The notes: generated by a model from the sequence alone, not told the origin. Counted from the first letter of the stretch, positions 4,602-33,420 are shown. The stretch is DNA of 44,853 nucleotides from Chloroflexota bacterium (GCA_012728955.1 JAAYED010000207.1:1-44853), one strand, 5' to 3'. Made by a program: numbers and translations.

Positions 4602-7232
4602 TCAGCCGATAGCCCTCTCCAGCTCTGACTGGGCAGCACTGAGCTGCTGCAGCGCATCCTCAAAGGTACCGGCGCTCTGGGCCAGGCTCACAACGCTCAT
4701 GGCATTGGCAATGTGTTCATCCAGCTCGGTCAGCGCCTCCGATTCACCCTGCTGCCGGAGAGCATTGGCGCGACGCTGCGCACGGTCCAGCAGGTTGCTG
4801 GCGGTGCGAAACTCGCGATTGAGCCGCTCCAGGGCCGAGCGTAACTGTTGCTCGGTGCCCGAGTAAATGTCGTGAGCCTCCTGCCCGAGGGTCACGGCGC
4901 GCTGCATGTCGTTCACCGCCTGGTCCAGCACTGTGGCCTCCTGGCTGGCACTCTGAGCGGCAAGGGCACGCTCCCAGGGCTCCTCGCCAGAACCCAACAC
5001 CCAGCTGATCTGCTGCCACTGGTTGTCATGCTCCAGAGAGCGCAGAGATGAGCGGGTGCGTTGGACCGCCTGCCCCAGCTGCTGGAACTGCCGCCGCAGC
5101 GCGTTCAGCGCCTGGCGACCATCGCTGATCTGGGTGCGAGCCTGTTCGATGCGACGCTCCAAATGGTCCGCCTGATGGGTGGCAAGGTTGGCCATGGCCG
5201 CCGGATTGGCACTTTCGGCCTCGGCGGTGGACACCCAGGACTGATAATCCGCCAGCAGCTTGGCCACATCCTCCGTGGGGAGCGGCGGCTCGAGCGGATC
5301 GAGGCGTTCCAGTCGCTGGTAGCTGCGCTGCAGCCGACGCCGCACGCTCTCCAGCTCACGCCCATAATGCGCCAGATCGCCGTCATAAGCGGACATGATG
5401 TTCTCGCCGGCGGTCCGGACCTCGGGCAGCCAGCTGTTCACCGCCTGCTCATAGTCCACCTGAGATTGATCCTCCAGAGTAGCGCGCACCTGCCGATAGT
5501 CCGCCAGCCAGGTGTCGTGCCGTTCCGCCAGCTCGGGCAGCATGGTGTCGCGCCGGGCAGCCAGGGCCGCTACCAGCCGCTTGTCCACATCCTCCAGCCC
5601 CTCATCCAGCCGCTGGTGCTTGTCCTGCAGCACACTCAGCCCCGACTCCAGCCTTTCAATGTTGGCGCGGGCGCCATCGCAGGCCTGCTTGACGGTGGCC
5701 AGAGCCGTCACAAGCGCGGGCAGCTCGGACTCGAGCGCTGTGCCCTGGTCACGGAACGCCAGCGGGATTTCACTCCAGGCGGCGTCCGCCGCATCGAGCA
5801 GTGCGACGGCTTCATCGTACTCGGCAGAGCGCAGCGGCAGCCAGTGACGCGCATAGGGCTCCCAGCCGCGCGCCAGCTCGGCACCCTTTTCTCGCAGGGC
5901 AGCCCGGGCAGCATCTCCCAGCCCCTCCCGGTCCGAGGCGAGCTCGGCGGCACGTTCCGTGGCATCCCCAACCTTGCCCAGGGCAGCTGTGAGGGTAGTC
6001 TGCGCCTCCTCAGCCAGGCTGGCCGCGGTGCGATAACCGTACTGCGTGCCCTGCGCCCGTTGGCGCTCGGCATCGCTCAAGAGCTGCGCGCCCAGCTCCA
6101 CATCGGCCGCGCTGCTGTCCCAGAACACCTGAGGATGCTGTTCCTGAGCGGCGACCAGTGCATCACGGGCCTCGGTGGCCAGTGCTTGCCCCCGAGTGAT
6201 ACCCGCCTCGCTGGCGGAGCGAGCGGCATCCAGCGCCTCCAGCTCTCCCATGATCGTCGTCGCCAGCCCCAGCGTCTCGTCACCCACCACAGTGGCACTC
6301 TGAAAGGCCTCTACGGTGGCGGCGTTCAAAGTTTCATCGAGGCCGGCAGAGGCCTCCAAGAGCTCATTCACCCGCTGTGCCGCCGATGAGTCCGTAACGC
6401 CTTGCTCCTGCAGCGCCTGCCAGCGGGTGCTCACCTCAGCCACTGCGCTGCGTACCCGTTCGGTGGCAACCTGAGCATCGACACGATGGGTACGGGCCGC
6501 AGTGAGATCCTCATCGGCTTGGGCGATGGTCTCGCCCGCCATGGTCAGCTGTTCTTCGGCCTGCAGCACAGTATCCAGCAGGTTGTCCTCCGTCGCCTGA
6601 TAAACCGCCTCCATGCTGGAGCCGATGGCGTTATCCACAAGAGCCAGGGAGTCTCCCAAAGGCTGGATGTCTTGCGTTCCCGCCTGAACCTCTGCCTCCC
6701 ACTGGGCGTACAGGCGCCGGATCTCGGCCTGGGCGGCCCCCAGATCGGCCTGCACGCGCTCCGGCACGCCCAGTGCCAGATCCTGCTGCTCCAGCAGCGC
6801 ATTGGCAGTATTCTCGGCGGCGGCAATCTCGCTCTCCAGCCGATCGCGCTCCTGCAGCGCCGCCAGAAGCGAACGGGAGCTGGTCCAGCCCTTGAGGGCA
6901 AGTACGTCCACCAGAGACAACTCATCAGGGGTAAAAGCCGCCACGCGGTCTGCCGTGTCGTTTGCCCGATCGAGCTCGCCACGCAGGGCCATCAGGAGGC
7001 TTGTGGCAGTCTGATCGATCTCGCCATAGCGCCCACCACGGGGTTCTTCGGGCCACAGCATCGTCTGTGTCCGTTCGGCATCCACCAGGCCATTGATGCG
7101 AGGTAGAGCATCGCCCACAAAGCTGGGGCGACCGCGCAGCCGCGAGAGGATCACCGCGTTGACCAGCCAACCCAGGAGGCACACCAGCAGGTATCCCCCC
7201 AACAGTATCAGGATCCATGACCACCAGGGCAT
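4602..7232 (-). CDS. Large membrane-anchored coiled-coil protein (EzrA-like architecture)
   Basis: 876 aa. One N-terminal transmembrane helix (residues 5-29, starting MPWWSWILILLGGYLL) is followed by a short basic stretch and about 840 residues of Ala/Glu/Gln/Leu-rich helical sequence. Heptad-like patterns and recurring Trp positions suggest spectrin-like helical bundles. One TM helix plus a long cytoplasmic helical rod is the layout of the division regulator EzrA, but I cannot see diagnostic sequence identity, so the function is unknown. GAGGAGG sits just before the ATG. The gene follows the enolase-superfamily gene by 42 bp on the same strand, so it may be cotranscribed with it. Other proteins of this type occur at 8636-9274 and 42928-44163. 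Confidence 0.8.
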   Translation of the reverse strand: MPWWSWILILLGGYLLVCLLGWLVNAVILSRLRGRPSFVGDALPRINGLVDAERTQTMLWPEEPRGGRYGEIDQTATSLLMALRGELDRANDTADRVAAFTPDELSLVDVLALKGWTSSRSLLAALQERDRLESEIAAAENTANALLEQQDLALGVPERVQADLGAAQAEIRRLYAQWEAEVQAGTQDIQPLGDSLALVDNAIGSSMEAVYQATEDNLLDTVLQAEEQLTMAGETIAQADEDLTAARTHRVDAQVATERVRSAVAEVSTRWQALQEQGVTDSSAAQRVNELLEASAGLDETLNAATVEAFQSATVVGDETLGLATTIMGELEALDAARSASEAGITRGQALATEARDALVAAQEQHPQVFWDSSAADVELGAQLLSDAERQRAQGTQYGYRTAASLAEEAQTTLTAALGKVGDATERAAELASDREGLGDAARAALREKGAELARGWEPYARHWLPLRSAEYDEAVALLDAADAAWSEIPLAFRDQGTALESELPALVTALATVKQACDGARANIERLESGLSVLQDKHQRLDEGLEDVDKRLVAALAARRDTMLPELAERHDTWLADYRQVRATLEDQSQVDYEQAVNSWLPEVRTAGENIMSAYDGDLAHYGRELESVRRRLQRSYQRLERLDPLEPPLPTEDVAKLLADYQSWVSTAEAESANPAAMANLATHQADHLERRIEQARTQISDGRQALNALRRQFQQLGQAVQRTRSSLRSLEHDNQWQQISWVLGSGEEPWERALAAQSASQEATVLDQAVNDMQRAVTLGQEAHDIYSGTEQQLRSALERLNREFRTASNLLDRAQRRANALRQQGESEALTELDEHIANAMSVVSLAQSAGTFEDALQQLSAAQSELERAIG

Positions 7233-18696: not shown

Positions 18697-18702
18697 GTTC
18701 TG

Positions 18703-18776
18703 CGGAAGCGACGGGAATCGAACCCGCGATCTTCGGCTTGACAGGCCGACGTGTTAGACCGCTACACTACGCCTCC
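18703..18776 (-). tRNA. tRNA-Asp (GUC)
   Basis: The minus-strand sequence folds as a full cloverleaf: acceptor GGAGGCG / CGCTTCC with one G-U pair, the D arm, an anticodon stem with loop CTGTCAA (18744-18738; anticodon GTC at 18742-18740), and a T arm GCGGG-TTCGATT-CCCGT. The discriminator base is G, as expected for Asp. The CCA end is not encoded. It has its own promoter upstream and terminator downstream. Confidence 0.96.
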
Positions 18777-18926: not shown

Positions 18927-20306
18927 TTGAGCGCTACCAGTTCCGATCCGCTCGCGCCAGGTACCCGCCTCAAGGGTCGCTACGAGGTGATTGACCTGAT
19001 CAAGGGCGGCGGCATGTCCTGGATCTACCGGGTGCGCGAACACCGTCAGGATGCCACCACCCAGCTGTGGGCACTGAAAGAGTTGCGCATCGACGCAGAG
19101 GATACCCACACCCTCGCCGAGGCGGAACAGCTCTTTGCTCAGGAAGCACATATCCTGGTACGCCTGAGCCATCCGAACCTGCCGCGCGTAGCTGCTTTTT
19201 TCAGCGAGAACGGTCGATCATACCTGGTGATGGAGTTTGTGCACGGCCACACCTTGCAGGAGATACTCGGGCGGGCCGGTGGGCCATTGCCCGAACGCGA
19301 GGTCACTCCCTGGTTCATCCAGGTGTGCGCGGTGCTCCAGTACCTGCACGCTCAGCGCCCAGCGGTGATCTTTCGCGATCTCAAGCCCAGCAATGTCATG
19401 GTTACCCCCTCCGGCGATATCAAGCTGATCGATTTTGGCATCGCCCGCACCTACAAAGTGGGCAAACTGCGTGACACTATCAGCATGGGTTCGGAGAACT
19501 ATGCGGCGCCCGAACAGTGGGGGCAGGAGCAGACCGACGCCCGCTCCGATGTGTACGCCGCCGGTGCGACGATGTATCATCTGCTGGCCAACGAGGCGCC
19601 GCTGCCGGCCTTTGTACCCGGGGAGCGCATTCCCCTGGAACGGCGCAACGCCGCCGTGTCGGCCCGGCTGGCGGAAGTGATCGCCCGGGCCATGGCGCCC
19701 GAACGCGCCGACCGGTACCAGTCGGCAGAGGAGCTGCGCGCGGCGCTGATTCGCACCCTGGCGCCGTGGGAACGGGTGCGCTGGCTGGGGACGGGCACCC
19801 GGACGCAGTCCGCGCCGCGGCAACCGGACACATCCCCGGGATACGCAACTGCAGAGGCAGTGGCACCGGCACCGATGGTATCACCACAGCCGAGCGTATA
19901 CTGTATACATTGTGGTGCGGCCAACCGACAGGGGGCGCGCTATTGCGCCAGCTGTGGCCGCCCCCAAACCGCCAGGTTGCGACGCACCCTGACGCTGCAG
20001 TATGCCTCGTCAGCACCGGTGCGGTATTCTCTGGAGCACAACAACACCGTAATCGGCCGGCGATCGCCAAGCCGTTCCGTGGATATCGATCTGGGTCCCT
20101 ATGATCCCCAAGGCTATGTATCACGTCAGCATGCGCAAATTGGCTGGCACCAGGGACAGGGCAGCATTCAAGATCTGAAAAGTTCGAACGGTACCTTTGT
20201 GAATGGGCGTCGCGTGCCGGCTGACCACGCCACACCCTTGCGCCATGGAGACGTGGTACGCATCGGCACACTGGAACTGCGCTACTCGGAGGAGCCCGAA
20301 GTATGA
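18927..20306 (+). CDS. Ser/Thr protein kinase with zinc ribbon and C-terminal FHA domain
   Basis: 459 aa, no TM helix. A Hanks-type kinase domain occupies residues 19-275: Lys51 in ALKEL, catalytic FRDLKPSN (Asp151, Asn156), IDFG (Asp169), AAPE, so it should be active. A Pro/Ala linker follows, then a C4 zinc ribbon (YCIHCGAANRQGARYCASCG, 325-344). An FHA domain lies at 365-455 with GRR, VSRQHA (399-403) and SSNGTFVNG (419-427), which reads phosphothreonine. Start: TTG 18927 with GGGAG 8 bases upstream; in-frame sequence further upstream runs through the tRNA and is not coding. First gene of a five-gene phospho-signalling operon; it overlaps the next gene by ATGA. Confidence 0.9.
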   Translation: MSATSSDPLAPGTRLKGRYEVIDLIKGGGMSWIYRVREHRQDATTQLWALKELRIDAEDTHTLAEAEQLFAQEAHILVRLSHPNLPRVAAFFSENGRSYLVMEFVHGHTLQEILGRAGGPLPEREVTPWFIQVCAVLQYLHAQRPAVIFRDLKPSNVMVTPSGDIKLIDFGIARTYKVGKLRDTISMGSENYAAPEQWGQEQTDARSDVYAAGATMYHLLANEAPLPAFVPGERIPLERRNAAVSARLAEVIARAMAPERADRYQSAEELRAALIRTLAPWERVRWLGTGTRTQSAPRQPDTSPGYATAEAVAPAPMVSPQPSVYCIHCGAANRQGARYCASCGRPQTARLRRTLTLQYASSAPVRYSLEHNNTVIGRRSPSRSVDIDLGPYDPQGYVSRQHAQIGWHQGQGSIQDLKSSNGTFVNGRRVPADHATPLRHGDVVRIGTLELRYSEEPEV

Positions 20307-21586
20307 TATCGCACGGCACCACACACACCTGCCACGATTGCGGGCGTGACAATCGGCCCGGGGCGAGTTTCTGTGCCTGGTGCGGAAGCCCGATCCCTTC
20401 AGATGAGGATCCTTGGCTGACTCCACGGGCGAGCCCGGTGCCCCCCGGTGCCGGGGGCGCTGTCACCCGCAAGCTTGATCCCGCCGAACTGGACCTGGCC
20501 ATGCCCCTGGGCGTGGGCACGCTGTTGGCGCAGCGATACGAGATCCTCGAGCTATTGACAGAGACGCCCGATAACCGAATCTATCGCGCCCGGGATCGAC
20601 AGCGCTGCCCGTCCTGTGGCCAGGTCGCGCTGGACACACCCGCACCGCCCTACTGTTCGCGCTGCGGCGCTCAGATGGCCCCCGCAGGCACGGTCAGCAT
20701 CCTCGAGTACCGAGCAGGTCCCTCCACGGAGCTGGAGGGGCACTTTCAGGATGGCGGCCGCGACTATTATGTCCAGTATGAGCCCAGCGGTCCATCCCGG
20801 GCGCTCGCCGCATCAGACTGGCGCGTGGTGTTCGGAACGGCGACCGATCCCGGATGCCAGGCCGACACCAACGAGGACGCCCTGGACGCCCGGCTGTACG
20901 CTGATCACCGGGGCACGCGTCTGGGCTATTTCGTAGTGGCCGATGGCGTGGGGGGCCAACAGCATGGTGAAATCGCCAGCCACGCCGCGGTGCAGGCAGC
21001 CTGGCATTCGCTCTATGAGGGGTTGTGGCAGATGGCCTTCCATGGCGAGGCCATCACCGATGCGGACGCACGCGCCGCAGTGACCGGAGCGATCAACGCG
21101 GCCAACAGCGCGGTCCAACAGGCGCGCAGCGTGCGCCAGAGCGACATGACCACCACGATCACGCTGGCCGTATTGGTGGGCCGCCGCGCGCACATCGGAA
21201 ACCTCGGAGACAGCCGCACCTACCTCTGGGACGCTCAGGGTCTCCACCGGGTCACCAAAGACCACTCTTTTGTGCAGCGGCTGGTGGATACCGGTCAGAT
21301 CAGGCCGGAAGAGGTCTACACACACCCACGCCGCAATCTCATCTACGGCTCGCTGGGGGAGCAAGCCCAGTGTCAGCCTGACCTGTACACCGTCGAGGTG
21401 GGCCCTGACGCGCGCCTGGTGCTGTGCAGCGACGGCTTGTGGGAGATGGTGCGTGACGAGGGCATCGAGGAGGTGTTGCTGGCAGAGCCGGATCCGCAGC
21501 GCGCCGCCGAGCGCCTGCTGCAAAACGCGCTGCTGGCAGGTGGCGCAGACAATATTGCCGTGGTGGTCGTACAGTTAGAGCGCTAG
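20303..21586 (+). CDS. Zinc-ribbon PP2C-type Ser/Thr phosphatase with remnant kinase N-lobe
   Basis: 427 aa. Order: zinc ribbon (CHDCGRDNRPGASFCAWCG, 10-28); a short segment GTLLAQRYEILELL...NRIYRARDR (72-99) that matches beta1-beta2 of the upstream kinase but lacks the Gly loop and all catalytic parts; a second zinc ribbon (CPSCGQ...YCSRCG, 102-122); then a full PP2C domain (about 172-426). PP2C motifs: NED (190-192), VVADGVGG (211-218), GNLGDSRTYL, LCSDGLWE (Asp377) and GGADNIAV (Asp416). It probably reverses the operon's kinases. ATGA overlap with the kinase gene. The kinase fragment is too short to fold alone and may dock to the active kinases (inference). Confidence 0.9.
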   Translation: MISHGTTHTCHDCGRDNRPGASFCAWCGSPIPSDEDPWLTPRASPVPPGAGGAVTRKLDPAELDLAMPLGVGTLLAQRYEILELLTETPDNRIYRARDRQRCPSCGQVALDTPAPPYCSRCGAQMAPAGTVSILEYRAGPSTELEGHFQDGGRDYYVQYEPSGPSRALAASDWRVVFGTATDPGCQADTNEDALDARLYADHRGTRLGYFVVADGVGGQQHGEIASHAAVQAAWHSLYEGLWQMAFHGEAITDADARAAVTGAINAANSAVQQARSVRQSDMTTTITLAVLVGRRAHIGNLGDSRTYLWDAQGLHRVTKDHSFVQRLVDTGQIRPEEVYTHPRRNLIYGSLGEQAQCQPDLYTVEVGPDARLVLCSDGLWEMVRDEGIEEVLLAEPDPQRAAERLLQNALLAGGADNIAVVVVQLER

Positions 21587-21609
21587 GGCAGGCACGGCAG
21601 GAGGAAAGA

Positions 21610-22878
21610 ATGACGCAGGAAATGCAGCTCGTTGTGACAACGAACAAACAATACGTCCCCGTGACGCAAACGCAGCAGCTGATCTATGTGCTGGTTTCGG
21701 CACAGCCCAGTTCGGTGCTGGCACGCACGCGCATGGGCCTGAACTTTGGCTTTGTACTGGATCGTTCCGGGTCGATGCGCGGCGCCAAAATGGACCGACT
21801 CAAGCAGGCGATGGAAGTGGCGGCGGCCCGCCTGGGGCCCAGCGATCGGGTGTCGGTGACCGTCTTTAACGACAGTGCCCAGATACTTTCCGCCAGTGGT
21901 CTGTTGAGCGAGCAGCGGTCCCTGGCCTTTCGGGTACGCTCCTTGCGCGCCGGAGGCGGCACGCAAATGGCGCGGGGCCTGAGCCTCGGCCTGCGAGAGG
22001 TCTTTCGCCACTTTGACCGCCAACTCTCCAACCAGGTGCTGCTGTTTACCGACGGACAAACCTATGGGGATGAAGAGCAATGTCTCAAGCTGGCGCGAGA
22101 GGCGGGTGAACATCACATCGCCATTCAGGCGCTGGGGCTGGGCGACGACTGGAACGAGGATCTTTTGGACCAGATGGCGCAGAGCAGCGGCGGCATCGCG
22201 GACTTGATCGAATCCCCCGACGAGATCGTGCCCTTGTTTACGCAGACGGTAGAGCGCTCGCAGAAGGCGGTAGTACGCAACGCCGCGCTGGTTTTGCGAC
22301 TGGTGCCTGGAGTCACCCCACGTCAGGTGTGGCAAGTCACCCCCCTGTTGGCAAACCTGGGGTACATGCCCATCGGCGAGAATGATGTGCAGATCGACAT
22401 GGGCGAGTTGGATGCGGAACAGGGCAAGTCGGTGCTGGTGGAATTGCTGCTACCGCCTCGACCGGCAGGAAACTATCGTATCGCACAGGCGCAGGTGACC
22501 TATGACCTGCCCCAGGCTGACAAGACCGGCCTGCAGACGCGTCAAGATGTGATTTTGGACTATACGGGTGACGCGACACTGGCGCGCCGATATGACCCTG
22601 CCATCATGAATTTGGTGGAAAAGGTCACCGCCTTCAAGTTGCAGACGAGAGCGCTCGATGAGGCGCGCATGGGCAATGTGGCGGCGGCAACCAAAAAGCT
22701 CCGGTCTGCGGCTACCCGCCTGCTGGAGATGGGCGAGGCCGATCTGGCCCGCTCCGCCCAGGCCGAGGCAGACAACTTGGAGAGATCTGGACAAATGAGT
22801 GCCGCAGGCACAAAAAAGCTGCGCTACCAGACCAGAAAACTGACACAACGACTATCGGACCTGCCCGAGGATATGTGA
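21610..22878 (+). CDS. von Willebrand factor A domain protein (TerY/CoxE-like)
   Basis: 422 aa. The vWA domain spans about 44-225 with an intact MIDAS motif D-x-S-x-S (Asp51, Ser53, Ser55 in FVLDRSGSM), a Thr in the GGGTQMARGL loop, and LLFTDGQTYGDE. A beta-sandwich-like region follows (about 230-340), and a helical C-terminus with several Lys/Arg (KVTAFKLQTRALDEARMGNVAAATKKLRSA). Without signal peptide or TM, it is presumably a cytoplasmic metal-dependent interaction platform. AGGAGG lies 6-7 bases before ATG 21610, 23 bp after the phosphatase gene. vWA + PP2C + kinase as neighbours is the TerY-P arrangement. Confidence 0.9.
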   Translation: MTQEMQLVVTTNKQYVPVTQTQQLIYVLVSAQPSSVLARTRMGLNFGFVLDRSGSMRGAKMDRLKQAMEVAAARLGPSDRVSVTVFNDSAQILSASGLLSEQRSLAFRVRSLRAGGGTQMARGLSLGLREVFRHFDRQLSNQVLLFTDGQTYGDEEQCLKLAREAGEHHIAIQALGLGDDWNEDLLDQMAQSSGGIADLIESPDEIVPLFTQTVERSQKAVVRNAALVLRLVPGVTPRQVWQVTPLLANLGYMPIGENDVQIDMGELDAEQGKSVLVELLLPPRPAGNYRIAQAQVTYDLPQADKTGLQTRQDVILDYTGDATLARRYDPAIMNLVEKVTAFKLQTRALDEARMGNVAAATKKLRSAATRLLEMGEADLARSAQAEADNLERSGQMSAAGTKKLRYQTRKLTQRLSDLPEDM

Positions 22879-22898
22879 GTACGCACAAGGAGCTGACC

Positions 22899-23975
22899 AT
22901 GAGATGCCAGAATTGTGGGAGTCAAGTTCAACCCGACGCCCTGTTTTGTGACCAGTGCGGCGCCAAGCTCGAGGCGGCACCGCCTTCCGCAGCGGTGACC
23001 GCAGCACCGGCGGCGATGCAGACACCCGTTGCCCCTGCGTCCATACCTGCCCTGCCTGGCGTGGCAGTGTGCGCCGCCTGTGGTGCCGAAAACTTGCCCG
23101 GTGAGGCGTTCTGCTCTGACTGCGGGTCACCGCTGGCCCCGCCAGAGCCGATGCCCGAGGCGGCTCCGTTCTCTGCAGCGGCGCCTGAGCAACCGGTGGT
23201 TGTGGAGGCTCCGCTGCCGCCAGAGGCCATGCCGGCCAGCGAGCCACCTGCCCCTGTGGCAACACCTGCCAGGGAGGAAAGCGCACCAGTTGCAGCCGCA
23301 CAACCCGAGCAGACCATTGCCTGCGCCGCCTGTGGCGCTGAACTGGAGGCGGGCGACCGCTTCTGCCACGCCTGTGGTGCCCGTGTCCAAGCGCCTGCGG
23401 CGGCGGTAGAGCCGCCGGCGGCGGTAGAGGCAGTGGAGGCGGCAGCGCCTGCCAGTCCTGCCCCGGCGGTGTTGACCGAGTGCCCCACCTGTGGCGCGCA
23501 CGTTACACCCGGCGAACTGTTTTGTGAGTTTTGCGGAGCAGCCCTGGTAAAACACGCGGCCACGCCAGCACAACAGAGCACGTCATCTGCGCCAGTGGCT
23601 GCGCCTGCAGCCGCAACTTTGTCGGTTGCAGCGCCGGCGACGGTAGAGGAAGGGCCTGCCTTGCAGGTGGTAGAGACGGGGCAGCTGTTGCTGCTCCCGG
23701 TAGGCACCGAGGTTCTGGTGGGCCGCGAGGACTCGTTCAGCAACATCTACCCGGACATCGACCTGACACCCTTTGGGGCGGAGGAAAAGGGCGTGTCCCG
23801 TCGCCACTTTAAGTTGACCGTGGCGGAGAACGCCTACGTGGTGCTCGATCTGGGCAGCACGAACTATACCTGGGTCAACCAGCAGCGGCTGCAGCCCAAC
23901 GTGCCCGTGCGGTTGCAGGATGGCGACGAGATTCGGGCAGGCCGGCTCAAGCTGGTGTTCAAGGCGAGAGGATGA
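22899..23975 (+). CDS. Protein with four zinc ribbons and a C-terminal FHA domain
   Basis: 358 aa. Four C4 zinc ribbons of the pattern CxxCG-x9-10-FCxxCG, at about 3-21, 58-76, 142-160 and 195-213, are separated by long Ala/Pro/Glu linkers. The FHA domain is at 262-356: VGRED, GVSRRHFKL (298-306) and a variant Ser-Thr-Asn loop STNYTWVN in place of the usual SxNGTxVN. It has no enzymatic domain, so it is probably an adaptor that recognises phosphorylated partners and multimerises through the ribbons. ATG 22899 has AAGGAG six bases upstream; GTG 22875 overlaps the previous stop but lacks an SD. ATGA overlap with the following kinase gene. Confidence 0.88.
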   Translation: MRCQNCGSQVQPDALFCDQCGAKLEAAPPSAAVTAAPAAMQTPVAPASIPALPGVAVCAACGAENLPGEAFCSDCGSPLAPPEPMPEAAPFSAAAPEQPVVVEAPLPPEAMPASEPPAPVATPAREESAPVAAAQPEQTIACAACGAELEAGDRFCHACGARVQAPAAAVEPPAAVEAVEAAAPASPAPAVLTECPTCGAHVTPGELFCEFCGAALVKHAATPAQQSTSSAPVAAPAAATLSVAAPATVEEGPALQVVETGQLLLLPVGTEVLVGREDSFSNIYPDIDLTPFGAEEKGVSRRHFKLTVAENAYVVLDLGSTNYTWVNQQRLQPNVPVRLQDGDEIRAGRLKLVFKARG

Positions 23976-25855
23976 CCACTCCCTGCCCCCAGTGCGGCCA
24001 TGACGTGCGCCCGGGCGCGCGATTTTGCCCGCGATGTGGTCGGCTGCTGCGTGAGCAGCTGGAGCCCGGCACATCGCTGGGCGAAGGGCGCTTTCGCATC
24101 CTGCGCTCCATCTCCAAGGGCGGCATGGGCGCCGTGTACCTCGCCGAGGATCGCGGCGCCTTTGATCGGCTGTGCGTGGTTAAGCAGATGCTCGAGTACT
24201 TTGATCCGGGTGACCCAGCCGAGCGTGCGCGCGCCCAGCAGCGCTTTGAGGAGGAGGGGCGCATTCTGGCCGAGCTGAGCCACCCGGGTATACCCCGCAT
24301 CTATGCCTTTTTGCAGGAGGGCGGCCGCTTTTACATTGTCATGGAGTATGTGCGAGGCGAGAATCTGGCTGCTTTTACCACCCGTGAGGATGACCGGGGC
24401 CCCGTGGCACCGGTACGGCGGCTGCCACGAGAAGAGATGATTCGGTACACCATCCAGGTGTGCCGGATTCTCGAGTATCTTCACAACGGGTCCACGCCTG
24501 TCGTGCACCAGGACATCAAGCCCGCCAATATCATCCTGGAGCCGCAACTGGGCGAGGTCAGGCTGGTGGACTTTGGCACAGCACGCAGCCGCAACGCCGG
24601 CAGTGGCGGGCAGCCGGGAACGAACGACCGGTCGAGCATCTATGGCACCGCCGGTTATGCCCCCCCGGAGCAGTACCGCGGCAACCCGGTGACCAAGTCC
24701 GACGTGTTTGCACTTGCTGCCACCACCTACCATGTCCTCACCGACGACGACCCCCAGGATCATCCCTTCAAGTGGCCCGAGCTCGCCTCGCTACCCAGGG
24801 AGCTGGCGGCTGCACTGGAGCGCGCGCTGCGCAACAGCGTCGACGAGCGCTGCACCGCCGCCGAGCTGCGTCAGGCATTGGAGCCGATGAGCACGCCCCA
24901 ACGCACCCTCGAGGTGTTTACCTTTCCTGGGAACGTTCAGATCCGTACCGTGGGCGGGCTCTCGGCCTTGGCCGACGAGCACTGGGACGCGGCCCGCGGA
25001 TTTCTGTATCAGGGCGATTTTCAGCGTTGGCTCAAAGACATCAACCGGCACGATCTCGTGCTGATCGCAGACCAGATCGTGGCCCGGGAGGACAATCAGG
25101 ACGCGGGGCTGGAACAGTTTCTGCAGGCCGTGGACCCAGGGTTGGCGCAGCCCACCATCAGCTCTGATCCGCCCGAGATCGACCTGGGCGGAGTGGCCCG
25201 CGTGTCGGCCCTTTCGGTGCGCGCCACGCTCACCAACCGCACCCGTGGCTATGTCCAGGGGTCCGTGTCATCCTCAGAGCCCTGGCTGGAGGTATACCCG
25301 CCCCTTGTGCACCTCTGGGCGGGGATTCCCTCTCATCTGAGGGTACATGTGCGGGCAGAGGATCTCCCACTGCGGTCGGAGCAACGGGGAACCATCACGG
25401 TGAGCGACCCGCAGGGGCAGACGCTGGCGCTGGTGCCCGTGCGGGCACGGGTGTCCCTGTGGCGAGAGGTGTGGCGGCTGGTGTGGCGCTCGCTGGCGGC
25501 AGCCATACCGCAGGGCTGGAGCTGGACGCGCACTGTGTGGCAGTGGCACGTCCAACACCTGCAGGCCCTGGCGGCACCCTTTGAGGGACGGCCCTGGCTG
25601 GTGGCGCTGGTGTGGGGCATCCTGTCCCTGGCTCTGGGCATCGCCCTGTACACCTTTCCTGTCGAGGCTCCCCTGGTGCCACTGGTCGGTCCGGCACTGC
25701 AAACAGGGGGCAGTGCCCTGCAGCTGGTGCTACGTGCCCTGGTCGTGCCGCCCCTGCTCCTGCTGACAACCTGGCTGGGGGCCTTTGTCATCAGCCTGGC
25801 AGGAGCCGGATTGATCGGCTCGGTGCTGGGGGGCATTCGCTCCTGGTCACGCTAG
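23972..25855 (+). CDS. Membrane-bound zinc-ribbon Ser/Thr protein kinase with Ig-like domain
   Basis: 627 aa. Zinc ribbon (CPQCG...FCPRCG, 5-23); Hanks kinase 40-305 with GGMGAVY Gly loop, Lys71, HQD-IKPAN (HRD with Gln instead of Arg, Asp181), VDFG (Asp200) and APPEQY. A small helical domain follows (about 325-390, LYQGDFQRWLKDINR...EQFLQAVDP), then an Ig-like domain (about 398-495) with the SEPWLEV motif. Two to three TM helices close the C-terminus (about 543-562, 585-612). The kinase precedes the TM segments, so the catalytic part should face the cytoplasm. Last gene of the operon, followed by a hairpin. The Ig-like domain is the same type as those repeated in 30112-33420. Confidence 0.9.
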   Translation: MTTPCPQCGHDVRPGARFCPRCGRLLREQLEPGTSLGEGRFRILRSISKGGMGAVYLAEDRGAFDRLCVVKQMLEYFDPGDPAERARAQQRFEEEGRILAELSHPGIPRIYAFLQEGGRFYIVMEYVRGENLAAFTTREDDRGPVAPVRRLPREEMIRYTIQVCRILEYLHNGSTPVVHQDIKPANIILEPQLGEVRLVDFGTARSRNAGSGGQPGTNDRSSIYGTAGYAPPEQYRGNPVTKSDVFALAATTYHVLTDDDPQDHPFKWPELASLPRELAAALERALRNSVDERCTAAELRQALEPMSTPQRTLEVFTFPGNVQIRTVGGLSALADEHWDAARGFLYQGDFQRWLKDINRHDLVLIADQIVAREDNQDAGLEQFLQAVDPGLAQPTISSDPPEIDLGGVARVSALSVRATLTNRTRGYVQGSVSSSEPWLEVYPPLVHLWAGIPSHLRVHVRAEDLPLRSEQRGTITVSDPQGQTLALVPVRARVSLWREVWRLVWRSLAAAIPQGWSWTRTVWQWHVQHLQALAAPFEGRPWLVALVWGILSLALGIALYTFPVEAPLVPLVGPALQTGGSALQLVLRALVVPPLLLLTTWLGAFVISLAGAGLIGSVLGGIRSWSR

Positions 25856-30111: not shown

Positions 30112-33100
30112 ATGACCAACACGCGTAACTGCCCCAAGTGCAATCAGCCCAACCCTCCGGAAGCCGCAGTGTGCAGCTCATGCGGTGCAGAACTGGTGCG
30201 TTATTGCCCCAGCTGCGGCGCACCGCGCCCCTGGTACGTGGCCGCTTGCCCCAATTGTCAGGCAGACCTGCAGGAGACGGCGCAGTTTGCGGACCTGTTT
30301 CGGGCGAACCGCAGCGGCGTGTTGCGCAGCCGCTATACCCTGCTGGACAAAATCGCCTCTGGAGCGGTGAGCGCCGTTTACCGCGCCGCCGACGTCAATC
30401 ACGCTAACCGCCTCTACGCGGTCAAAGAACTCTCCACAATTTCCCTTTTCCGCCCCGACGAGAGACGCGAGGCGGTGGCTCGGCTCTCGCGGGCTATTGA
30501 ACGCTGGTCTCAGGTGCGGCATCCTGGTCTCGCCCGCGTGGTGGATGCCTTCCGTGAGCGGGACCGTTATTATGTCGTCTCTGAGTATGTGTATGGCTGG
30601 AGCGCAAGTCAGTTGTTGACGGAGGCGTCGAGCCACATCCCGCCAGAGCTGGTGCGTAACTGGGGCGCCCAGGTTGCCGATCTCCTTGAGCACCTGCACA
30701 CCCTGACAGATCCCTTGTTCGTGCCCTTTCTCTCACCTGCTCACTTGATCGTGAATCCCGAGGGCCAGGTGCGTCTCGTGGGCTATGGCCTGGGATACTA
30801 TATCCGGCCGACAACCTATGGGCCCTATGGCGGGCTGCCCGGCTACGGTGCCCCCGAGTTGAGCCGACAAAGCCCCGACTCCCGCACGGACATTTTCAGC
30901 CTCGGGCGGGTGCTGTACGCCCTGCTTATCGGCCAGCCACTGGAGCGCGGAGTGCCCAAAGGCACGGCGCTGGATCGTGCGGTTCCCGGTATCTCCAAGC
31001 AATTGGTGCGCGTAGTCGCGCAGGCAGCCACCAGCCGGCGGGAACGCCGCTACGAGCGCGCCGCAGACCTGGCATCTGCCTTGAGAGAGGGCGCGCTGGG
31101 CCCCATGGAGCCCGTATACGGTTGGCACGAGCAGTCGGGCAGCGCCCTGGCCTCGCATCTCACCCGGCAATCCGAGGGGCAACCCTCTGAGCAGCATTCC
31201 ATGGAGGCACTGGGCTATGCGCGCGACCCGCGTTTTGGCCCACGGCCCGAGCCCACAGCAGCCGCCTTGTCGACCCCGACACTGCCGGCCAGTTCCAGTG
31301 CCAAACTCTCGGCCAGTCCCACCCGACTGACGCTGCGCGATCTGCCGCCCAACGCGCCTCGCCGGGCCGTACTGGCAGTGCGCAATGCAGGGGGCGACCA
31401 GCTCACCTTTCGGGTTGCCAGCCAGGTGCCCTGGATCAAGGCGCCCAGTCGCGAGGTCAGCCTGAGTGCCGGCCAACAGGCGAGGGTGGTAGTAACCGTG
31501 GATCCTCAAGCCTTGCCCGCCGAAAGGGTCAACGAGACACAGGCGCTGTTGCTGGAATCCAATGTGGGCAGACTCTGGATCGCGGCGTCTATCCAGATCC
31601 GCACGGCACCGGCGCTCAGCGTTGATCAGGACAGCCTGGATTTTGGCGAGGTCGATGCTCCTCAATCGCTCGAGATCACGGTACGCAACCAAGGCAGGGA
31701 GCGGCTGGAAGGCCAGATCGTCTCTCAGGTGCCCTGGCTGGAGCCCAGCCCGGCTTTACTGCGCGTTCAGGGAGGGGCGAGAGCCACGCTTACTGTGCGA
31801 TTGCGCCCGGAGCGCATGCCCGACGGACCGCAGACGGTCGCCCAGGCTCTCCTGCTGGACACAAACGGCGGCCAGAGCGCCATCGCAGCGCAGGCCTGGC
31901 GCCCCAACCCGCACCTCGAGATCGCTGGGGGCATCGATCTGGGAAATGTGAACCCCGAGGCGCCAGTCACGGACGTGATTACCGTGAGCAACTCGGGCGA
32001 TGGCGCGCTGCGCGGCACCGTCAGAAGCCTGGTGCCGTGGCTGCAGGTGTCGCCAGAGACGGTGCAGTGTGCCGCTGGCGAGAGCTTGACGCTGCAGATC
32101 ACCGCCGACACCACCGGGCTGGGCGACGGTACGGTACAGCTCCCTCAGGGGCTGCGGGTGCAAACCAACGGGGGAGCGGCCACTCTGTGGGTGCGCCTTA
32201 ACAACCGGGCCCCGCGCCTTGAGGTGCAGATGGCGTTGCTCGATTTCGGACAGATCACCCTGGGGCAGACGGTGGCGCAAGACCTGGTGATCCGCAACAG
32301 CGGGTCAGCAGACCTGTATGCAGCAGTGAACTCTGCCCTGGACTGGGTGCACACCTCTGAACGCTCGGTGCAGTGCGCCCCTGGCGAATCTCAGATTATT
32401 CGCGTCACTCTGGATTCGTCGCTTCTGCCCCGCGGTGGGCTGTACAACGAGCCCATCGCTCTGCGCATCTCCAGCGGTGCGGACATGCAAATGGTCGGGC
32501 TGAATGCATTGGTGCTGCAGCCAGAGCTCACCGCACAACCGATGCTGGTAGACTTTGGCTATCTGGACCCACTGACACCGGGAGCCGCGGAGGTGCTGCT
32601 GACCAACACCGGTACCGGTGAGCTGGCATGGCATGCGCAGTCCGACGTCGAGTGGTTAGAGATCGAGCCCACCAGCGGACGCTGTGCCGAGGGAGAAGCG
32701 GCCAGCGTACAGCTGCGCGCCTATGCGCTGGGCCTCGAAGCGGGCCACCAGCAGGCCTCCGGCAGCCTCGCCATCACCAGCGATGCCGGCAGAATCAAGA
32801 TCCCGCTGCGTGTTGCCCTGGCGGCACCGCGTATCGCCATGGACCGAACTTTTGTCGACCTGGGTATCAGTGTGAACCGCGAAAACGTCGCGGCCGCCGT
32901 ACGGATCTTTAATCGGGGCTTGGGCCTGTTGCGCGGCACGGCGATGTCGGATAGACTGTGGTTGGTTACTGGTCGCACCTCTTTTGAGTGTGACACGGGA
33001 CACTCGATCGAGCTCAGCCTCGGCACGGACATGGACGAGTTCCCCGAGGACCTCAGCGAGGACCGCGCCGTGGTTTCCATCGAATCCAACGGCGGGGCCA

Positions 33101-33420
33101 CCGAGATCGATGTGCGGGTGCAGATCGAGAGGCGCCCGATGTTGCGCGAGCCAGAGCCGGTGCAGCTGCGCGGGGGTGAACGCCCGCAGGGGCGGCTGGT
33201 GCTCTGGAACGATGGAATGGCCCCGGCCATGGTTGACCTGCAGCCAACGGACGTCCGACTGGGGATCTCCAGATCCGATGTTCAGGTCAAGCAGGGCAAG
33301 AGCGTACGCATCTCGGTGAGCTGGGATGGCAGCCAGCCGCCAGAGGCACCGGTCAGCATCGGCATTCGCAGTGCCGATCAAGAGTGGCAGGTACCGGTGG
33401 AGTTTACGACGAGCACCTAG
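30112..33420 (+). CDS. Zinc-ribbon pseudokinase with about seven Ig-like repeats
   Basis: 1102 aa, no TM or signal peptide. Two zinc ribbons (CPKC...CSSCG and CPSCG...CPNC, residues 7-49), then a Hanks kinase fold (about 74-325). The VAIK-type Lys105 (AVKEL) and GAPEL survive. The HRD-x-K-x2-N loop has become VPFLSPAH (204-211) and DFG has become GYG (224-226), so the phosphotransfer and Mg-binding residues are gone: a pseudokinase. After a Ser/Pro linker come about seven Ig-like repeats of 101-103 residues (397-1100), each with a Trp in a PWL-like motif (Trp441, 542, 643, 745, 848, 950) and an NGG turn. Probably a large intracellular scaffold. The RBS before ATG 30112 is weak, but the promoter is perfect consensus. 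Confidence 0.88.
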   Translation: MTNTRNCPKCNQPNPPEAAVCSSCGAELVRYCPSCGAPRPWYVAACPNCQADLQETAQFADLFRANRSGVLRSRYTLLDKIASGAVSAVYRAADVNHANRLYAVKELSTISLFRPDERREAVARLSRAIERWSQVRHPGLARVVDAFRERDRYYVVSEYVYGWSASQLLTEASSHIPPELVRNWGAQVADLLEHLHTLTDPLFVPFLSPAHLIVNPEGQVRLVGYGLGYYIRPTTYGPYGGLPGYGAPELSRQSPDSRTDIFSLGRVLYALLIGQPLERGVPKGTALDRAVPGISKQLVRVVAQAATSRRERRYERAADLASALREGALGPMEPVYGWHEQSGSALASHLTRQSEGQPSEQHSMEALGYARDPRFGPRPEPTAAALSTPTLPASSSAKLSASPTRLTLRDLPPNAPRRAVLAVRNAGGDQLTFRVASQVPWIKAPSREVSLSAGQQARVVVTVDPQALPAERVNETQALLLESNVGRLWIAASIQIRTAPALSVDQDSLDFGEVDAPQSLEITVRNQGRERLEGQIVSQVPWLEPSPALLRVQGGARATLTVRLRPERMPDGPQTVAQALLLDTNGGQSAIAAQAWRPNPHLEIAGGIDLGNVNPEAPVTDVITVSNSGDGALRGTVRSLVPWLQVSPETVQCAAGESLTLQITADTTGLGDGTVQLPQGLRVQTNGGAATLWVRLNNRAPRLEVQMALLDFGQITLGQTVAQDLVIRNSGSADLYAAVNSALDWVHTSERSVQCAPGESQIIRVTLDSSLLPRGGLYNEPIALRISSGADMQMVGLNALVLQPELTAQPMLVDFGYLDPLTPGAAEVLLTNTGTGELAWHAQSDVEWLEIEPTSGRCAEGEAASVQLRAYALGLEAGHQQASGSLAITSDAGRIKIPLRVALAAPRIAMDRTFVDLGISVNRENVAAAVRIFNRGLGLLRGTAMSDRLWLVTGRTSFECDTGHSIELSLGTDMDEFPEDLSEDRAVVSIESNGGATEIDVRVQIERRPMLREPEPVQLRGGERPQGRLVLWNDGMAPAMVDLQPTDVRLGISRSDVQVKQGKSVRISVSWDGSQPPEAPVSIGIRSADQEWQVPVEFTTST
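31300..33411 (+). repeat. Coding repeat array: about seven Ig-like domains
   Basis: Diverged in-frame repeats of about 303-309 bp within the pseudokinase gene. Aligned landmarks are a DFG-x-V/I strand at each repeat start, an N-x-G turn, the (V)PWL motif and a late L-x-S/T-NGG strand. Trp spacing is 101, 101, 102, 103 and 102 residues. The last unit lacks the Trp. Confidence 0.75.

What the first reader, a model, noticed from the sequence alone, without database searches (positions are those of the whole stretch)
18927..25855. Expanded TerY-P-like phospho-signalling operon with FHA readers
Five genes with ATGA overlaps or short gaps encode kinase-ZnR-FHA, ZnR-PP2C, vWA, 4xZnR-FHA and ZnR-kinase-Ig-TM. 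The kinase + PP2C + vWA core is the TerY-P triad logic known from tellurium-resistance-associated stress systems. Here there are two kinases, two FHA phosphothreonine readers, and zinc ribbons in four of five proteins. This suggests a closed circuit: a membrane kinase, a soluble kinase/reader, an eraser, and adaptors around a vWA platform. Ter and MoxR-type genes are absent.
Basis: partly seen in the sequence, partly recalled or inferred. Interest (0 to 1): 0.75.

Follow-up and report, generated by a model that had tools for sequence, protein, structure and literature searches.

The report
Bacterial ArnA/ArnB-like phosphothreonine switch operon
Five neighbouring genes in a Chloroflexota bacterium encode what looks like a self-contained protein-phosphorylation switch (two kinases, one phosphatase, a scaffold and phosphothreonine readers) whose core resembles the archaeal ArnA/ArnB motility switch, and a simpler form of the same operon occurs across Chloroflexota and also in cyanobacteria and Deinococcus.

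Summary
The five genes and their domains are real, and the operon is conserved: the window's family keeps the same five-gene order, and 35 of 49 well-flanked homologues of the vWA protein across Chloroflexota, Cyanobacteriota and Deinococcota have a kinase, a PP2C and an FHA gene beside them. In this MAG the operon holds both detected FHA domains, the only PP2C_2 phosphatase and two of three Hanks kinases; the third lies 4.3 kb downstream. TerY-P is the wrong family. By sequence the vWA protein's best PDB hit, and by fold its second best, is ArnB of Sulfolobus (8S05; Z 32 over 371 residues): a vWA domain splitting a beta-sandwich, plus a C-terminal four-helix bundle. Its neighbour has the ZnR-FHA layout of ArnA. 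I read it as an ArnA/ArnB-type phosphothreonine switch carrying its own kinases and a PP2C, with T408 (TRKLT, conserved in 57/66 homologues) as a candidate docking site. New observations: the phosphatase carries a degenerate kinase N-lobe with an inserted zinc ribbon, a remnant of pseudokinase-PP2C fusions seen in relatives; the vWA protein's sister lineage is fused to a J-domain. Output unknown; archaellum and Ter are not supported. New variant of a known kind.

The parts
18927..20306 (+). Gene A: Hanks Ser/Thr kinase - zinc ribbon - FHA (459 aa, TTG start likely)
   Evidence: Pfam Pkinase 5e-40, Zn_Ribbon_1, FHA 4e-18; catalytic Lys, Asp and DFG and the FHA GR/SRxH/N residues conserved in 12 homologues; closest PDB kinase PknB
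20303..21586 (+). Gene B: zinc ribbon - kinase N-lobe relic (B residues about 68-165) with a second zinc ribbon inserted - PP2C phosphatase
   Evidence: PP2C_2 2e-15; metal-binding Asp residues invariant; relic: hhalign to kinase profile prob 96.9, E 1.3e-10, four unrelated profiles under 1%; AF2 model and PP2C fold Z 28.9
21610..22878 (+). Gene C: ArnB-like vWA protein (split beta-sandwich + vWA with MIDAS + C-terminal four-helix bundle)
   Evidence: VWA 6e-18; best PDB sequence hit ArnB 8S05 E 1.3e-18; AF2 pLDDT 90.6; VIA Z 32.2 to 8S05 over 371 aa and 37.2 to 4FX5
22831..22845 (+). Candidate FHA-docking motif T408-R-K-L-T412 in the last helix of C
   Evidence: T408 57/66, R409 58/66, L411 55/66, T412 45/66 across homologues
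22875..23975 (+). Gene D: four zinc ribbons + FHA (ArnA-like layout); real start perhaps 22899
   Evidence: Zn_Ribbon_1 x4, FHA 8e-16; FHA ligand residues conserved in 11 homologues
23972..25855 (+). Gene E: zinc ribbon - non-RD kinase (HQD) - Ig-like region - C-terminal TM segments
   Evidence: Pkinase 1e-30; K71, D181, DFG and Q180 invariant in 5 homologues; about 3 hydrophobic segments by hydropathy
30112..33420 (+). Likely associated third kinase: two zinc ribbons - kinase - about six Ig-like (HYDIN/BACON) repeats, 1102 aa
   Evidence: Pfam; homologous to E's C-terminal region; same relative position in G001; only other Pkinase in the genome

Best explanation
A self-contained phosphothreonine switch of the ArnA/ArnB type. 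C is the ArnB-like scaffold: a vWA domain splits a beta-sandwich, followed by a four-helix regulatory bundle. D is the ArnA-like partner: its zinc ribbons would dock on C when C is unphosphorylated. The two kinases (A soluble, with its own FHA; E membrane-anchored) would phosphorylate threonines in C's helical bundle, most likely T408 in the conserved TRKLT motif; this exposes the bundle and the FHA domains of D and A bind it tightly. B, the PP2C, resets the switch; it carries the shrunken remains of a pseudokinase with a zinc ribbon in the N-lobe, which probably acts as a docking or regulatory arm. The state of the C-D complex is the output passed to unknown partners. Shown here by computation: domains, conservation, genome-wide scarcity of other FHA/PP2C genes, the ArnB fold, the conserved Thr motif, the kinase-like relic. 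Inferred: who phosphorylates whom, ZnR docking, FHA binding, switch behaviour, signal and output.
For: C's best sequence match in the PDB is ArnB (8S05, E 1.3e-18 by a single sequence, 2e-22 by profile) and its predicted fold aligns end to end with 4FX5, ArnB and ArnE (Z 37.2, 32.2, 26.1 over 394, 371, 352 aa). D is ZnR-FHA and directly follows C, as in most homologues: an FHA gene lies beside the vWA gene in 40 of 49 well-flanked loci, PP2C in 41, kinase in 38, all three in 35. In Sulfolobus the ArnA zinc finger binds the ArnB beta-sandwich/bundle when unphosphorylated, and the FHA domain binds pThr in the bundle after ArnC phosphorylation (PMC12852372, PMC6509490). Catalytic residues of A, B and E, the vWA MIDAS residues and the FHA ligand residues are conserved. 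In G000 both FHA domains and the only PP2C_2 are in the operon. In all 12 family genomes with a PP2C_2 match, one such match is the operon's, and G012 lacks vWA, FHA and PP2C together. The most conserved Thr of C outside the vWA domain is T408, in a TRxLT motif of the last helix.
Against: No phosphorylation or binding data exist for any of these proteins. Pfam's ArnB_C model does not hit C or the genome. Foldseek/VIA ranks the actinobacterial 4FX5 above ArnB, so the family is broader than Arn. In the AF2 model T408 sits inside a helix and would have to be exposed. The Arn phosphatase is PP2A, not PP2C. Relatives such as G001 have two more FHA and two more kinase matches elsewhere, so the circuit is not closed in the whole family; G000 is 89% complete, so its counts may be low.
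Confidence: 0.6

Rival explanations
1. A TerY-P-like stress module: the vWA protein senses a metal or stress and the kinase/phosphatase pair controls a Ter-type response.
For: Kinase + PP2C + vWA in one operon is the triad logic; R478 has vWA/TerY_C, PP2C and kinase in a row.
Against: C lacks TerY_C and has the ArnB fold; its profile prefers ArnB to TerY by 104 against 38-58 bits; the R478 kinase and PP2C are distant (14 and 16 bits); no TerD in the genome.
Confidence: 0.08
2. A general housekeeping Ser/Thr kinase system (mycobacterial PknA/PknB-PstP-FhaA/FhaB type) acting on many cell targets such as envelope growth, with the vWA protein as one substrate among others.
For: Same parts list of two kinases, one PP2C, two FHA proteins; A's kinase is closest to PknB in the PDB and B to PstP/Stp1; these are nearly the only such genes in the genome.
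Against: No PASTA domain or extracellular sensor (NCBIfam PknB_PASTA far below its cut-off); no rodA/pbpA seen among the neighbours; the constant partner in relatives is the vWA protein next to FHA.
Confidence: 0.2
3. A chaperone- or GTPase-linked conflict/defence module related to the kinase-ZnR + PP2C + vWA genes noted beside actinobacterial GAP1-N2 GTPase systems (PMC7159879).
For: [quoted passage not shown] the sister lineage here is J-domain-vWA, suggesting an Hsp70 link; clusters occur on cyanobacterial and Deinococcus plasmids.
Against: In the family the locus is vertically inherited (f1 clade 100/100) and in several genomes beside tyrS/serS; no effector or GTPase gene recognised in the operon; PADLOC hits are generic to kinases, none for C or D.
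Confidence: 0.12

Closest known systems
ArnA/ArnB motility-repression module of Sulfolobus acidocaldarius (8S05, 5A8I; paralogue ArnE 5A8J), with kinases ArnC/ArnD and phosphatase PP2A
   Same: vWA protein with split beta-sandwich and C-terminal helical bundle next to a zinc-ribbon-FHA protein; Hanks kinases and a Ser/Thr phosphatase; threonines in the bundle
   Different: Bacterial; kinases and phosphatase are in the operon; PP2C instead of PP2A; four ZnR instead of one; a second FHA on a kinase; no archaellin in this genome; ArnB_C Pfam model not hit
4FX5, vWA protein of Catenulispora acidiphila
   Same: Closest solved fold to C (Z 37.2)
   Different: Function not known to me; its gene context not examined
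TerY-P triad (plasmid R478)
   Same: Kinase, PP2C and vWA genes in a row; zinc-binding domains
   Different: Short TerY vWA with TerY_C, other kinase type, no FHA seen, ter genes adjacent
Kinase-ZnR + PP2C + vWA genes beside actinobacterial GAP1-N2 GTPase systems (eLife 2020, PMC7159879)
   Same: Kinase with zinc ribbon or TM helices, PP2C and vWA in neighbouring genes
   Different: No FHA mentioned in that passage; GTPase-linked; no GTPase recognised here
Mycobacterial pknA-pknB-pstP-fhaA-fhaB operon (from own knowledge)
   Same: Two kinases, one PP2C, two FHA proteins
   Different: No vWA; PASTA kinase; cell-wall genes in the operon
Type VI secretion PpkA-PppA-Fha pathway (from own knowledge)
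   Same: Kinase, PP2C, FHA and a vWA domain
   Different: FHA proteins far below the TagH cut-off
PRK14559 serine/threonine phosphatase (NF011149)
   Same: PP2C C-terminus matches B
   Different: B scores far below its cut-off and is shorter

Membership tests
ArnA/ArnB module | ArnB architecture: vWA inserted in a beta-sandwich, then a C-terminal helical bundle | tested here: met
   AF2 strands 5-33, vWA 44-200, strands 220-319, helices 330-417; Z 32.2 over 371 aa to 8S05
ArnA/ArnB module | Sequence similarity of the vWA protein to ArnB | tested here: met
   Best PDB hit, E 1.3e-18; profile 2.3e-22
ArnA/ArnB module | Pfam ArnB_C (PF18677) match | tested here: not met
   No match in the genome nor in eight C homologues. 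I therefore call it ArnA/ArnB-like, not a member of the Arn family
ArnA/ArnB module | Adjacent zinc-ribbon-FHA partner | tested here: met
   D directly follows C; FHA within 6.5 kb in 40 of 49 loci
ArnA/ArnB module | Phosphorylation of bundle threonines by a Hanks kinase and FHA binding | not testable with these tools
   Only conservation of T408/T412 seen
ArnA/ArnB module | Control of the archaellum | tested here: not met
   No archaellin in G000; in 15 family genomes only G003 and G012 have one, and G012 lacks the module
TerY-P triad | TerY-type vWA with TerY_C | tested here: not met
   No TerY_C in C; R478 TerY proteins score 38-58 bits against 104 for ArnB
TerY-P triad | Kinase, PP2C and vWA co-linear | tested here: met
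TerY-P triad | TerD-family genes in the genome | tested here: not met
   (genome 89% complete)
Mycobacterial PknB-PstP-Fha operon | PASTA-domain kinase | tested here: not met
   NF033483 195 and 143 bits, cut-off 450, kinase part only
T6SS threonine phosphorylation pathway | TagH/Fha-type FHA protein | tested here: not met
   TIGR03354 47 and 28 bits, cut-off 120
T6SS threonine phosphorylation pathway | T6SS structural genes in the genome | not tested
   No search made
MoxR-vWA ternary systems | MoxR ATPase in the operon | tested here: not met
   Two MoxR genes exist, on other contigs
GAP1-N2-linked kinase/PP2C/vWA | GAP1-N2 GTPase neighbour | tested here: inconclusive
   None among the annotated neighbours, no dedicated profile run

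The most novel reading that the evidence does not exclude
Bacteria encode a complete, operon-borne ArnA/ArnB-type (Sec23/24-core-like) phosphoswitch, widespread in Chloroflexota and shared with Cyanobacteriota and Deinococcota, in which the eraser is a pseudokinase-PP2C fusion and a sister lineage couples the switch to Hsp70 through a J-domain; the archaeal Arn system would then be one branch of a much wider signalling family.
Probability: 0.3. Interest if true: 0.75.

Novelty: new variant of a known kind. Interest (0 to 1): 0.56.

Why it matters
ArnA/ArnB is known experimentally only from Sulfolobales, and its wider kinship was pointed out mainly by structure. The pseudokinase-to-relic series fused to PP2C and the J-domain-vWA fusion are concrete, testable additions.

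Tried and rejected
Archaellum as output: rejected for this genome, and the paper on Chloroflexota archaella names no Arn genes. TerY-P membership: rejected. Anti-phage defence: PADLOC hits are generic kinases, C and D have none. ArnB_C Pfam model: no hit. A Foldseek/VIA test of B's relic by structure was not informative because PP2C fills the list; the relic rests on profile comparison and on relatives with longer kinase-like regions. Pfam on B homologues gave no kinase hit among the 25 families listed. A genome-file script was not possible. My only genome-contig scan used a single sequence and reached few relatives. Literature searches found nothing on the Deinococcus or Chloroflexota operon as such; the two papers that name DRA033x loci were not read.

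Full report
Observation. A must start near the TTG at 18927, since the longer ORF overlaps tRNA-Asp 18702-18776 (-); D probably starts at about 22899, where its homologues start. Catalytic and ligand residues are conserved in the family: kinase Lys, Asp and DFG in A and E (E is a non-RD, HQD kinase), the PP2C metal ligands, the MIDAS of C, and the FHA GR / SRxH / N residues of A and D. In E, kinase and Ig-like region both precede the hydrophobic segments, so both should be cytoplasmic and there is no large outer sensor (inference from order).

Conservation. The window is contig C185 of a 2.64-Mb MAG (89% complete); related public records are Anaerolineae/Chloroflexota MAGs. Twelve of the 14 other family genomes match C; in eleven the match is long (62-79% identity), and in G007 only the first 45 residues remain at a contig end. 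Wherever the contig is long enough, the gene order is kinase-PP2C-vWA-ZnR/FHA-kinase; some relatives add a sixth ZnR-kinase directly downstream. With a profile of C, 127 of 301 Chloroflexota genomes have a match at E <= 1e-20. Of 49 full-length homologues with at least 4.5 kb on both sides, 38 have a kinase, 41 a PP2C, 40 an FHA and 35 all three on the same strand within 6.5 kb (the loci were chosen by C, not by its neighbours). The set includes cyanobacterial plasmids (vWA-FHA-PP2C-kinase) and Deinococcus plasmids (vWA-kinase-FHA-PP2C). A tree of 66 homologues gives the family as one clade (100/100), and in several genomes the operon sits between tyrS/TauE-like and serS genes, so it appears to be inherited vertically within the family.

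Genome-wide scarcity. Pfam scans of the whole MAG find two FHA domains, both in the operon, three Pkinase genes, two in the operon and one 4.3 kb downstream, and one PP2C_2, gene B. In the family most genomes have a single PP2C_2, and G012, which is 95% complete, lacks vWA, FHA and PP2C together. This supports a circuit, with limits: other family members such as G001 (99% complete) carry two more FHA matches and two more kinases elsewhere, and G000 may miss genes.

What C is. The best PDB match of C by sequence is 8S05, ArnB of Sulfolobus acidocaldarius (E 1.3e-18; profile 2.3e-22); the paper on that entry describes ArnB as a beta-sandwich split by the vWA domain plus a C-terminal regulatory helical bundle (PMC12852372). 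The AF2 model of C (pLDDT 90.6) has that same order, and VIA-align gives Z 37.2 to 4FX5, 32.2 to ArnB over 371 residues and 26.1 to ArnE. ArnB_C of Pfam does not hit, so I call it ArnB-like, not ArnB. TerY is a poorer match: 38-58 bits for the three R478 proteins against 104 for ArnB with the same profile, and the R478 kinase and PP2C score only 14 and 16 bits.

How it may work. In Sulfolobus the ArnA zinc finger holds unphosphorylated ArnB loosely; ArnC phosphorylates threonines of the bundle, several early sites lie in helices 8-9, and the ArnA FHA then binds tightly; PP2A reverses this (PMC12852372, PMC6509490). Here D has the ArnA layout, C the ArnB layout, and the operon brings kinases and a PP2C. 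The bundle of C ends in a TRKLT motif; T408 is Thr in 57 of 66 homologues, R409 is conserved in 58, L411 in 55 and T412 in 45, even where the rest of the bundle has diverged. Apart from the MIDAS-region threonines it is the most conserved Thr of the protein, and is my candidate docking site. That step is inference.

The phosphatase. B residues about 68-165 align with the kinase N-lobe (hhalign probability 96.9, E 1.3e-10; unrelated profiles 0.1-0.6%). The AF2 model (pLDDT 74) shows paired strands before and after the inserted zinc ribbon; there is no helix C. In other Chloroflexota the PP2C of the same kind of cluster carries a longer kinase-like region: L054 79 bits, L100 39.5, L084 23 bits to the kinase profile, without the HRD aspartate in L054 and L084; a cyanobacterial one gives 12 bits. 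So B looks like the end of a series pseudokinase-PP2C to N-lobe relic. The role of the relic is unknown; docking to kinase or substrate is a guess.

A J-domain sister lineage. Most Anaerolineae relatives outside the window's group have a longer C (about 490 aa) with an N-terminal J-domain (Pfam DnaJ 3e-21 in L057; HPD motif in many). They form one side of the tree (95/85), and G016 has both types. This hints at an Hsp70 link for that branch; the window's C has none.

Output. Unknown. The archaellum is not it in this genome; TerD is absent. An FHA-FHA-ABC transporter lies near one relative's cluster and a similar FHA-FHA membrane protein near another; these could be clients.

Verdict. The parts are all known kinds and kinase-ZnR + PP2C + vWA neighbours were noted in actinobacteria (PMC7159879), so this is a new variant of a known kind rather than something categorically new. 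I found no paper describing this operon, within an open-access library only.

Noticed in passing
30112-33420 (+): A third ZnR2-kinase with about six Ig-like HYDIN/BACON repeats and no TM segment, related to E; kinases of similar length occur in most family genomes, but one lies near the operon only in G000 and G001 among the loci read.
   Followed up: partly
L055-L072 (e.g. L057:6553-8034): The Anaerolineae-wide relatives of C are J-domain-vWA fusions.
   Followed up: partly
L054:5545-8256, L084:6309-7982, L100:10536-12386: PP2C phosphatases fused to degenerate kinase domains with zinc ribbons in the N-lobe.
   Followed up: partly
L052:12442-14931: ZnR-FHA-FHA-ABC transporter (ATPase plus ABC2 membrane domain) beside the module; a similar FHA-FHA membrane protein by L088.
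   Followed up: no
L081 (Deinococcus wulumuqiensis plasmid): The vWA-kinase-FHA-PP2C cluster lies directly downstream of pprA and lexA, suggesting a possible DNA-damage link in Deinococcus.
   Followed up: no
L079, L080 (cyanobacterial plasmids): The cluster is preceded by further vWA genes, an ARC6/PARC6-family gene and a serine hydrolase in a conserved order.
   Followed up: no
G001:C25:7104-9290 and equivalents in G002, G006, G007, G009, G010: A second conserved pair, an FHA protein and a large kinase with FHA, not found in G000.
   Followed up: no
4602-7232 (-): 876-aa protein with weak similarity to SMC coiled coils and no Pfam family above its cut-off.
   Followed up: no
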